From contig JARWKL010000001.1 of NCBI GenBank assembly GCA_029961685.1, positions 59,011,314 through 59,075,313 on the forward strand: a stretch of 64,000 nucleotides of DNA, given 5' to 3'. This document shows, piece after piece, positions 56,363 to 58,692 of this stretch (position 1 is its first letter; every line of letters begins with the position of its first letter). This DNA comes from Aristolochia californica (lineage: Eukaryota > Streptophyta > Magnoliopsida > Piperales > Aristolochiaceae). The notes below the pieces were generated by a model. It made no database searches. It was not told the origin of the DNA and saw only the letters and a program-made list of their open reading frames with translations. Made by a program: the position numbers and the translations under genes.

Positions 56363-56562
56363 TGTCAGAGTGGTTCCGTCCACTCTTGTTAGAGTTTGTG
56401 TTCTGAGTTAGATACTTGGCTTTCCGCACCTTAAACGACTAGTCTTTTCGGGTTGTATTGGCTAGGTATCTGACTCAGAACTCCGAAGTTAAGTGAGCTT
56501 GGGCAAGAGTAATTATAGGATGGGTGACCTCCTGGAAAGGACTCTTGCCTAGGACTTTGACA
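56363..56562 (+). repeat. 5' LTR (200 bp) with embedded 5S rRNA-like Pol III promoter
   Basis: It begins TGTCAGAG and ends TTTGACA. From about 56473 to 56548 it follows the 3' two-thirds of plant 5S rRNA: TCAGAACTCCGAAGTTAAG, then GCTTGGGC, then GGATGGGTGACCTCCTGG. Box A, the intermediate element and box C are therefore all represented. Confidence 0.95.
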
Positions 56563-56574
56563 TGGTATCAGAGC
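56563..56574 (+). promoter_or_regulatory. Primer binding site for initiator tRNA-Met
   Basis: TGGTATCAGAGC directly abuts the end of the 5' LTR and is complementary to the 3' end of plant initiator tRNA-Met, the usual minus-strand primer of plant copia and TRIM elements. Confidence 0.95.
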
Positions 56575-56968
56575 TCTGAAGAATAACCCCGACGTATTTC
56601 TCGTCCGACGACCTGTGTTGTCCGACCAATTTTTTTTCTCTTCACTTCGGCATTGATTTCGTGCGCTGTTAGAAATACTTGTGGGGTGGTTTCGTTGCCG
56701 GACGAGTTACGGGGGTTCCGTTACCGGAAAGGGGCTTCTCGCCGGAAGGGGAAACGACCCGTAGAGGCTCTCGCCGGAAGGGGAAACAAAAGGGGTTGTC
56801 GGCAAGTATTTTCCGAGCTCGAAAACGTTGTGGTTCCGTCGTCGGAACAGCTCCATCGGTGGTTTCGTTGCCGGAGAAGCTACAGCGCGACGGAGGTTCT
56901 CGGCAGAAACTCGCCGGAAGGGGGAACGAAGGTAAATTTTTTTTTGGCATATGGTCATTTTGCAATTT

Positions 56969-57315
56969 TAAAATCTTTGGGGGCCGCTTTGCAATTTCTG
57001 AACGATTGGGGCACTTTGAAATTTCTGAAAGATCGGGGGCCGCTATTAAATATATGCACGTTTGGGGGCCGCTTTGAAATTTATGAAAGTTTGGGGGCCG
57101 CTTTGCAATTTCTGGAAGCTTGGGGGGCCATTCTGGCATTTCTGAAAGTACGAGGGTGCTTTTCGAATTTCTGAAAGTTTGGGTGCCTAATTCGAATTTC
57201 TGTTAACCTGGGGGCAACTCTTGGATTTCTGTAAGTATAGGGGTCTATTTGCAATTTCTGAAAAGTGAGGGTTTACTTGGAATTTCTTATCTTGCGGGGG
57301 TGCATCAGGAATTTT
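56969..57315 (+). repeat. Degenerate ~27-30-bp minisatellite in the retroelement leader
   Basis: About a dozen copies of a unit like GGGGGCCGCTTTGCAATTTC followed by TGAAAGTTT run up to the gag start and diverge gradually (early copies GGGGCCGC, late ones GGGTCTATTTG). Upstream (56735-56930) a second motif, CTCGCCGGAAGGGGAAAC, occurs about three times. The leader between primer site and gag is thus ~760 bases of mostly repeated text. Confidence 0.85.
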
Positions 57316-57333
57316 GCTAGATTCAATTTTATC

Positions 57334-58149
57334 ATGTCAGCAGATAAGTCCGATTTCGTTCCTATTCGGTTCACGGGCAAGAACTACGGTACTTGGGAAT
57401 TTCAGTTCCGGTTATTTGTTCAGGGAAGAGGTTTATGGGGTCATATTGATGGGAGTGATCCGGCCCCTGGCGATGCTGACGCATTGTCAAAATGGATCAT
57501 CATGGATGCTAGAGTCATGACTTGGATACTTGGATCTCTTGAGCCTCACCTAGTCCCAAATCTGAGGCCCTACAAAACTGCCGCAGATATGTGGAATTAC
57601 CTCCACAAAGTTTATCGTCAAACCAGCACGGCCCGTCGATTTCAAGTTGAATATGAACTTGCAAATTTCACCCAAGGCAGTCGTTCGATTGAAGAATATT
57701 TCTCGGGCTTCCAAAATCTATGGGCTGACTACACTGACATTGTTTACGAGGATGTCCCTGCTGCTGCTCTCTCTGCTGTGCAAGCTGTCCATGACACCAG
57801 TAAACGGGATCAATTCTTGATGAAGCTTCGTCCCGAGTTTGAGATTGCTCGATCACATCTGATGAATCGTCATCCGGTGCCGTCCCTAGATGCCTGTTTG
57901 AGTGACCTTCTCTGGGAGGAGCAACGCCTTACTACTCAGGCTAGCATGACACCTCGCGTTCAGGATGATCTCTCGGCTCCTGTAGCTTATGTAGCACAAG
58001 GAAGGCCTCAGGGTCGGGACACCAGTTCTGTTCAGTGCTTCCATTGCAAGGCTTATGGTCACTTTGTTCGGGACTGCCCCAAGAAGTCGGTTCTATTCTG
58101 TAGCTACTGTAAGAAGCCGGGTCATCAATGTAATTTATATTCAATGTAA
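57334..58149 (+). CDS. Ty1/copia-type Gag polyprotein (gag only) of the LTR element
   Basis: 271 aa from MSADKSDFVPIRFTG. The N-terminal copia gag fold is recognisable: FTGKNYGTWEFQFRLF, then the UBN2-like block (DMWNYLHKVYRQ...ARRFQVEYELANF, SIEEYFSGFQNLW) and RDQFLMKLRPEFE. Two zinc-knuckle segments follow, CFHCKAYGHFVRDC (complete CX2CX4HX4C, about 240-253) and CSYCKKPGHQC (about 260-270), cut short just before its last cysteine position. The ORF then runs 5 codons into unrelated sequence and stops, so the gag is truncated at its second knuckle but otherwise intact. No pol frame follows. Start chosen at the Met preceding the conserved fold. An upstream in-frame Met at 57265 reads through the minisatellite and is unlikely. 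Confidence 0.92.
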   Translation: MSADKSDFVPIRFTGKNYGTWEFQFRLFVQGRGLWGHIDGSDPAPGDADALSKWIIMDARVMTWILGSLEPHLVPNLRPYKTAADMWNYLHKVYRQTSTARRFQVEYELANFTQGSRSIEEYFSGFQNLWADYTDIVYEDVPAAALSAVQAVHDTSKRDQFLMKLRPEFEIARSHLMNRHPVPSLDACLSDLLWEEQRLTTQASMTPRVQDDLSAPVAYVAQGRPQGRDTSSVQCFHCKAYGHFVRDCPKKSVLFCSYCKKPGHQCNLYSM

Positions 58150-58157
58150 TTTATATT
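58126..58157 (+). repeat. 16-bp tandem duplication at the gag/LTR-like junction
   Basis: CAATGTAATTTATATT occurs twice head-to-tail (58126-58141, 58142-58157), exactly where gag similarity stops. It marks a recombination or slippage junction. Confidence 0.85.
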
Positions 58158-58163
58158 CATAAT

Positions 58164-58430
58164 TGTTGTATAATTTGGGATATGTATATAGGGTTATTTG
58201 ATTAGGCTTAATGGGATGAGGGGGTATTGTCTTGGGCCCATGGGCCATTTTGTAACAGGAAAACCTAAAGGATATATATTTAATGAAAGGGGAAAAATCT
58301 CCAACGGACAGAATTCTGGATTTCGTCGTGTGTTTCGTTTCGCTGTGAAACCAGAGAGCTACGCTCTCTCTTGTGGATGTTTGGACTGTTCCGTCAGTCC
58401 CTTGATCTTGTTTTGTCATGGTATCAGAGC
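58164..58430 (+). mobile_element. Captured LTR-like segment with its own primer binding site inside the element
   Basis: TGTTGTATAATTTGG... to ...TTGTTTTGTCA (58164-58418) has TG...CA ends, a TATATATTTAA box-like word near 58275 and a downstream CT-rich part, like a copia LTR of about 255 bp. It is followed directly by TGGTATCAGAGC (58419-58430). It shares no sequence with the outer LTRs, so it comes from a different element. Confidence 0.7.
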
Positions 58431-58480
58431 TAGGCACGCCACGGCCCGCGTTCGTATCCCGTGAGAAGCGGCTCCAGAAT

Positions 58481-58492
58481 GGGTGGGGTGGG
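58481..58492 (+). promoter_or_regulatory. Polypurine tract of the LTR element
   Basis: GGGTGGGGTGGG immediately precedes the 3' LTR; it is interrupted by two T residues. Its position fits plus-strand priming. Confidence 0.7.
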
Positions 58493-58692
58493 TGTCAGAG
58501 TGGTTCCGTCCACTCTTGTTAGAGTTTGTGTTCTGAGTTAGATACTTGGCTTTCCGCACCTTAAACGACTAGTCTTTTCGGGTTGTATTGGCTAGGTATC
58601 TGACTCAGAACTCCGAAGTTAAGTGAGCTTGGGCAAGAGTAATTATAGGATGGGTGACCTCCTGGGAAGGACTCTTGCCTAGGACTTTGACA
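58493..58692 (+). repeat. 3' LTR (200 bp) with 5S rRNA-like segment
   Basis: Identical to the 5' LTR except for one base (G58666 versus A56536). At that base the 3' copy agrees with the 5S rRNA consensus CCTGGGAAG, so the change arose in the 5' LTR. The 5S-like part is about 58603-58678. Confidence 0.95.

What the first reader, a model, noticed from the sequence alone, without database searches (positions are those of the whole stretch)
56363..58692. Recently inserted gag-only retrotransposon whose LTRs carry a 5S rRNA Pol III promoter
Seen: 200-bp LTRs with a single mismatch, a 5S rRNA-like segment in each, a tRNA-iMet primer site, a 271-codon copia gag, no pol, a polypurine tract and a perfect GAGAC target duplication. 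Known: Cassandra TRIMs have 5S-bearing LTRs but no coding capacity; TR-GAG elements encode only gag but are not known to me to have 5S LTRs. Inference: this combines both types, so a Pol III-type promoter sits in an element that also needs a Pol II mRNA for Gag. It may be an undescribed family, or the Gag-encoding relative from which Cassandra-like elements derive.
Basis: partly seen in the sequence, partly recalled or inferred. Interest (0 to 1): 0.88.

Follow-up and report, generated by a model that had tools for sequence, protein, structure and literature searches.

The report
Cassandra–Copia recombinant retrotransposon reveals helper
In a California pipevine genome, a tiny parasitic retrotransposon (Cassandra) and a full-sized one have been joined by recombination several times, which points to the full-sized element as a candidate for the long-sought helper that copies Cassandra.

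Summary
The element (56363-58692) is a recombinant of two families in the Aristolochia californica genome. One is an ordinary 474-bp Cassandra TRIM (200-bp 5S LTR, 74-bp interior, 200-bp LTR). The other is a young Copia family, here called X (about 5.5 kb, 303-bp LTRs, an open 1353-codon gag-pol in the copy read). The order is LTR_C, X leader, X gag cut in its second zinc knuckle, X LTR lacking its first 28 nt, Cassandra interior, LTR_C. The X piece is joined exactly at the tRNA-iMet-type primer site, the only exact match of 12 nt or more found between Cassandra and an X copy. Nine X/Cassandra composites turned up, in several architectures. Both outer ends were seen in seven; six have an exact 5-bp target duplication, one does not. 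Two of the six have one X end and one Cassandra end, so the joining most likely preceded integration, by template switching between co-packaged RNAs. Texts I read call Cassandra's autonomous partner unknown; X is a concrete candidate. The specificity control (does Cassandra also recombine with other families?) could not be run, and three key Cassandra papers were not available.

The parts
56358..56362 (.). Target site duplication GAGAC (left)
56363..56562 (+). 5' Cassandra LTR (LTR_C), 200 bp
   Evidence: 93 LTR matches in the 40 scored candidates
56475..56547 (+). 5S rRNA-like segment of the 5' LTR (region of the internal Pol III promoter)
   Evidence: 73 nt ungapped; Rfam 5S below cut-off
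56563..56575 (+). Primer binding site TGGTATCAGAGCT (iMet type), shared by X and Cassandra: first recombination junction
56563..57333 (+). Leader of Copia family X, with a roughly 29-bp repeat at about 56949-57263
56630..56637 (+). T8 run, potential Pol III terminator (another, T9, at 56937-56945)
57334..58127 (+). X gag, 794 bp, truncated in the second zinc knuckle (the ORF runs on to 58149)
   Evidence: 2 of 794 mismatches to X copy L051
58128..58143 (+). Extra copy of a 16-bp stretch (tandem with 58144-58159) at the deletion junction; pol, PPT_X and the first 28 nt of LTR_X are missing; TCA microhomology
58144..58418 (+). LTR of Copia family X, positions 29-303 of 303
58419..58431 (+). Second PBS (Cassandra's own): second recombination junction
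58419..58492 (+). Complete 74-bp Cassandra interior; purine-rich tract GGGTGGGGTGGG at 58481-58492
58493..58692 (+). 3' Cassandra LTR, 200 bp (5S-like part 58605-58677)
58693..58697 (.). Target site duplication GAGAC (right)

Best explanation
The element is a two-family tandem recombinant, LTR_C - int_X - LTR_X - int_C - LTR_C, made while a Cassandra RNA and an X (Copia) RNA were reverse-transcribed in one X virus-like particle. Inferred steps: minus-strand synthesis starts on the 3' end of the Cassandra RNA and crosses its 74-bp interior and PBS. It then switches at the shared PBS/LTR end to the 5' end of the X RNA, makes the normal strong-stop transfer to the X 3' end, and copies X back to the X PBS (here skipping pol by a short-homology jump). 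The plus-strand strong stop made from the Cassandra PPT (LTR_C plus PBS) lands on the X PBS, so both outer LTRs are Cassandra's. Integrase inserted the product as one unit with a 5-bp TSD. Shown: the anatomy, the junctions, the TSDs, the recurrence in varied architectures, and a coding-competent X copy. Inferred: co-packaging, template switching, and X as a helper of Cassandra. The gag in the window copy has no role of its own in this reading; X supplies Gag and Pol.
For: The window's LTR and last 74 bp match ordinary Cassandra copies. The middle is X DNA. X is young: in the 8 fetched copies with both LTRs, the pairs differ at 0-3 of 303-304 positions, and the printed flanks show exact 5-bp duplications in 8 of 8 (L052 after shifting the boundary by one base); L051 has an open 1353-codon gag-pol with gag, integrase and RT domains. 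Same architecture elsewhere: L060 with a different internal deletion (TSD ATAAA); L063+L059 with X of near full length by coordinates between Cassandra LTRs (TSD GTTAC; X body known only from the leader and gag matches); L066+L090+L092 (3' LTR truncated, part of the X body and the 5' joint not read). Reciprocal: L061+L065, X LTRs outside and Cassandra inside (TSD GATGT). L068 = LTR_X-int_C (shortened)-LTR_C (TSD TTGGA). L049 = X and a Cassandra array head to head, one U5_X end and one U5_C end sharing TSD CATCC. Against X copy L051 the only exact match of 12 nt or more is the PBS, 13 nt, or 15 with the final CA of both LTRs. Outer LTR pairs differ by 1/200, 9/200, 8/199 and 4/305, so the events differ in age.
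Against: No RNA, particle or cDNA data. One inverted composite, L088/L091, has no matching TSD (left GAATA, right TGTAT) and may be a later rearrangement. For same-ended composites taken alone, a TSD does not exclude recombination after a Cassandra insertion. The 5' end of L062/L089 was not seen. Searches scored only the 40 best candidates, so counts are lower bounds. Of 40 X leader matches, 35 have X's own LTR upstream: recombinants are a minority. Whether Cassandra also recombines with other families was not tested, because that search did not complete.
Confidence: 0.83

Rival explanations
1. Composites arise at the DNA level after integration: an X circle or cDNA recombines into a resident Cassandra at the primer site, or unequal exchange occurs between neighbouring copies.
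For: Keeps the Cassandra TSD in the same-ended composites. Published work leaves both routes open for tandem LTR arrays (passages of PMC11899658; Discussion of PMC7215508). L088/L091 lacks a TSD.
Against: X and Cassandra share only a 13-15-nt exact match, short for homologous recombination. L049 and L068 have one X end and one Cassandra end with a common 5-bp TSD, so the joined molecule was most likely integrated as such.
Confidence: 0.1
2. X particles only occasionally pick up Cassandra RNA; the regular helper of Cassandra is another family, and X/Cassandra recombinants are by-products.
For: Recombination shows shared particles, not how often. Cassandra is described as widespread and ancient (passage of PMC10853983), so it may use several helpers. 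The specificity control did not run.
Against: Nine composites of different ages, all with X; but the searches that found them started from X and from the window's own junctions, so other partners could have been missed. The families share the PBS, a similar LTR end (TTTGACA / TTTGTCA) and 5-bp TSDs.
Confidence: 0.35
3. A self-standing gag-encoding family with 5S LTRs.
For: 5S LTR plus gag in a recent insertion with a TSD.
Against: No second copy with this deletion among the 40 scored gag matches. L060 has a different deletion without gag; the other composites in which that part was read keep an X LTR. Of 40 leader matches starting at base 1, 35 have the X LTR upstream, 4 have LTR_C and 1 is mixed. 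T runs precede gag.
Confidence: 0.02
4. Assembly artefact.
For: Repeats can be misjoined.
Against: Assembled from PacBio HiFi reads plus Hi-C (PMC11334207 passages); the element is 2.3 kb, shorter than typical HiFi reads (read length recalled); nine separate loci, six with exact TSDs. No reads were examined here.
Confidence: 0.02

Closest known systems
Cassandra TRIM (5S-bearing non-autonomous LTR retrotransposon)
   Same: Outer LTRs with 5S-like segment, methionine-type PBS, purine tract, 74-bp interior; ordinary 474-bp copies and tandem arrays in the same genome
   Different: The window copy holds 1.86 kb of Copia X. PMC10853983 states that none of its Cassandras shows remains of coding regions, and its smallest element is 563 bp (passages)
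Tandem-array TRIMs / tandem LTR retrotransposons
   Same: LTR-int-LTR-int-LTR layout inside one TSD (PMC7215508 Discussion; PMC11899658 passages; PMC4717578 passage)
   Different: As far as those passages show, each published array is built of one family (PMC11899658 looked for highly similar repeats); here two unrelated families alternate
TR-GAG elements
   Same: gag without pol between LTRs
   Different: The gag is truncated and belongs to another family's autonomous element; a single copy found (TR-GAG known to me from recall and the listing only)
Dasheng / RIRE2 in rice
   Same: Non-autonomous element with a putative autonomous partner (title in a reference list); that chimeras served as an argument is recalled, not read here
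   Different: That pair shares high LTR identity (passage of PMC1940013); X and Cassandra share little beyond the primer site
Recombinant Onsen elements in Arabidopsis
   Same: Pairwise recombination during transposition bursts (abstract of PMC5668417)
   Different: There between members of one family; here between unrelated families

Membership tests
Cassandra TRIM | 5S rRNA-derived segment in the LTR | tested here: met
   73-nt match, score 96 vs max 26 in 500 shuffles (5S typed from recall); Rfam score below cut-off
Cassandra TRIM | Methionine-tRNA PBS and PPT next to the LTRs | tested here: met
   read in the sequence; tRNA type from recall and PMC10853983 passage
Cassandra TRIM | No coding capacity, under about 1 kb | tested here: not met
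   window copy is 2330 bp with a gag ORF; ordinary copies in the genome are 474 bp
Cassandra TRIM | Pol III transcription from the LTR | not testable with these tools
   needs RNA data
TR-GAG | Intact gag ORF and no pol | tested here: not met
   no pol, but gag is cut after 794 bp, in the second zinc knuckle
TR-GAG | Multi-copy family sharing this structure | tested here: not met
   none of the other 39 scored gag matches crosses the junction; the other junction hits that were read have other structures
Copia family X as autonomous partner | Complete gag-pol and recent activity | tested here: met
   (ORF read in L051 only)
Copia family X as autonomous partner | Physically joined to Cassandra before integration | tested here: met
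   L049 and L068: unlike ends with one 5-bp TSD; L088/L091 has no TSD
Copia family X as autonomous partner | Packages and copies Cassandra RNA | not testable with these tools
   needs particle RNA or extrachromosomal cDNA
Copia family X as autonomous partner | Exclusive or preferred partner | not tested
   the search for other partners did not complete

The most novel reading that the evidence does not exclude
X is the autonomous retrotransposon that copies and integrates Cassandra in Aristolochia. Cassandra RNA enters X particles although the two share little more than the tRNA primer site, and serial switching at that site during reverse transcription builds both the mixed arrays seen here and the tandem Cassandra arrays known from many plants.
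Probability: 0.58. Interest if true: 0.82.

Novelty: new variant of a known kind. Interest (0 to 1): 0.72.

Why it matters
Cassandra is an old and widespread plant TRIM with a Pol III promoter. Its helper is called unknown in the Discussion of PMC7215508, and PMC10886601 states that there is no indication of the responsible family (passage). Recombinants give a coding-competent candidate and a way to look for helpers in other plants: search for the PBS junctions. Mixed-family arrays can also help to separate the two routes proposed for tandem arrays, which PMC11899658 leaves undecided, because unrelated LTRs offer almost no homology for DNA recombination.

Tried and rejected
Rejected: a new gag-only family (no second copy with this junction among the scored matches); a TR-GAG element (gag truncated, belongs to X); nested insertion of X into Cassandra (only one X LTR, no X TSD, junctions at the PBS); Pol III expression of gag (T8 and T9 runs before gag).

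Led nowhere: Rfam at gathering threshold does not call the 5S part. L064 did not hold the expected 5' end of L062. L067 and L069, two of the nine hits, look like arrays of a related short-LTR TRIM and were not counted. L088/L091 was counted as a composite but fails the TSD test; the X body between its two fetched ends was not read. L053 has a Cassandra-interior-like piece 105 bp upstream of an X insertion; not counted. Kalendar 2008, Maiwald 2021 and Yin 2014 are not held, so a prior report of Cassandra/Copia chimeras there cannot be excluded. Searches behind 'not found in print': 28 papers, 28 listed; 36, 30 listed; 5 of 5; 11, 10 listed; some searches served TR-GAG, Dasheng and the host genome. 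Most listed papers were not opened.

On checking the draft I corrected: the number of gaps between neighbouring LTR matches (53, not 52); the gag identity range (96-100%); the shared match (13 nt, 15 with the LTR's CA, against one X copy); the contig-length evidence for the host (four proteins); and the wording on published arrays.

Full report
What is in the window. The element at 56363-58692 has 200-bp LTRs with one mismatch and a GAGAC target duplication. The LTR carries a 5S-like stretch that Rfam scores below its cut-off. The ORF 57334-58149 has Copia gag and zinc-knuckle domains. The sequence also shows a second primer site at 58419, so the interior is not one simple interior.

Host. The window's genome is held: G000, 659.6 Mb in 521 contigs. 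Contig C489 is 42,251,748 bp long, exactly the scaffold N50 printed for Aristolochia californica dmAriCali1 haplotype 1, assembled from PacBio HiFi and Hi-C (passages of PMC11334207); the paper gives 661.6 Mb in 531 scaffolds, slightly more than G000. Four A. californica gag proteins (P0016, P0113, P0045, P0021) lie on contigs whose lengths equal C511, C500, C111 and C13.

Cassandra in this genome. The LTR gave 93 matches in the 40 candidates that were scored, out of 1074 in the first look. They form 40 clusters: 38 with two or more LTR matches, and two singletons, which are the window's own LTRs. Of 53 gaps between neighbouring LTR matches, 41 are exactly 74 bp. The 74 bp before the window's 3' LTR (58419-58492) match the interiors of the copies in L002, L003 and L005-L008 at 92-99%. 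An ordinary Cassandra here is thus 474 bp; L002 and L006 have 5-bp TSDs.

Family X. The leader and gag DNA belong to a Copia family with unrelated 303/304-bp LTRs (TGTTACGATATG...TTTTGTCA). Of 10 stretches of 9.9 kb fetched, 8 hold a copy with both LTRs, 5469-5506 bp long, with LTR pairs that differ by 0, 0, 2, 3, 1, 2, 2 and 1 positions and exact 5-bp duplications in the printed flanks, L052 after a one-base boundary shift; L050 showed one X LTR only, and L049 is a chimera. L051 has an open gag-pol of 1353 codons with gag, CCHC, integrase and reverse-transcriptase domains. The window's gag differs from L051 at 2 of 794 positions. The 39 other scored gag matches are 96-100% identical. The Copia lineage was not determined.

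How the window copy is built. LTR_C is followed at the primer site by the X leader and gag. The gag stops at base 794, in the second zinc knuckle, and continues at position 29 of the X LTR through a TCA microhomology with a 16-bp tandem duplication; pol, the X PPT and 28 nt of the X LTR are gone. The X LTR ends at 58418, is followed by the complete Cassandra interior, and then by LTR_C. The order is LTR_C, int_X (deleted), LTR_X, int_C, LTR_C.

Not a one-off. All 40 leader matches that start at base 1 among the 43 rows were examined upstream: 35 have LTR_X, 4 have LTR_C (window, L049, L063, L060) and 1 (L088) is mixed. A pattern for the LTR_X/Cassandra-interior junction gave 9 places, and the reversed control pattern gave 0; 7 are clear junctions including the window's, 2 (L067, L069) are not. 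Together nine composites: window, L060, L063+L059, L066+L090+L092 and L062+L089 (5' end unseen) with Cassandra on the right; L061+L065 with X outside; L068 with one LTR of each and a shortened interior; L049 and L088+L091 head to head. In L063+L059, L066+L090+L092 and L088+L091 part of the X body between the fetched pieces was not read.

Integrated as units. Both outer ends were seen in seven composites; six have an exact 5-bp duplication (GAGAC, ATAAA, GTTAC, GATGT, TTGGA, CATCC) and one, L088+L091, does not. L068 (X start, Cassandra end) and L049 (U5_X and U5_C ends) are the strongest, since an event inside an already inserted Cassandra would not give a common TSD to unlike ends. Against X copy L051, LTR_C and the interior share no exact word of 12 nt or more except the 13-nt primer site, 15 nt with the CA that ends both LTRs. 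The internal jumps of the window, L060 and L061 lie at overlaps of about 3-4 nt.

Mechanism. Template switching at the primer site during reverse transcription of two co-packaged RNAs predicts same-family outer LTRs for full products and exact PBS joints, as seen. It is an inference from anatomy. Published discussions keep both template switching and DNA recombination open for tandem arrays (PMC7215508 Discussion; PMC11899658 passages).

Pol II or Pol III. The alignment would place the 5S start near LTR position 76, with TTTT at LTR positions 83-86. PMC10886601 says that Cassandra RNA starts in the 5S part of the 5' LTR and ends in that of the 3' LTR (passage). In the window copy, T8 and T9 runs lie before gag, so a Pol III RNA should stop early. 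The copy is probably a dead end (inference).

Novelty. [quoted passage not shown] PMC7215508: '(unknown) autonomous retrotransposon partners'. PMC4717578 found larger relatives for 11 of 289 TRIM subfamilies by sequence similarity (passages); X shares too little sequence with Cassandra to be found that way. Three key Cassandra papers are not held, so priority is not certain.

Limits. The test for other partners did not run, and the composites were found by searches that started from X and the window's junctions. Counts are lower bounds. Whether X is the main helper, rather than an occasional one, is open.

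Noticed in passing
L067, L069 (C221:3530900-3531900; C329:1171100-1172100): Arrays that look like a TRIM with a short LTR (start like LTR_C, little or no 5S part) and the same type of 74-bp interior: possibly a 5S-less relative of Cassandra.
   Followed up: partly
L005, L007, L008: Ordinary Cassandra arrays with inverted units (LTR fragments head to head), similar in kind to the inverted chimera L049.
   Followed up: no
L002, L003 and clusters: Ordinary Cassandra is 474 bp here, shorter than the 563 bp (Saruma henryi) given as smallest in the data set of PMC10853983.
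   Followed up: partly
window 55951-56248: The element sits beside or in a decayed reverse-strand stretch that reads like an old Copia gag (by eye; no search run).
   Followed up: no
window 8801-8882 (-): SNORD36 snoRNA match, 52.5 bits.
   Followed up: no
window 55157-55230 (+): tRNA-Lys(TTT) gene about 1.1 kb upstream of the element.
   Followed up: no
window 56949-57263 and other X leaders: Roughly 29-bp repeat in the X leader, of unknown role; the matched leader length varies by copy.
   Followed up: no
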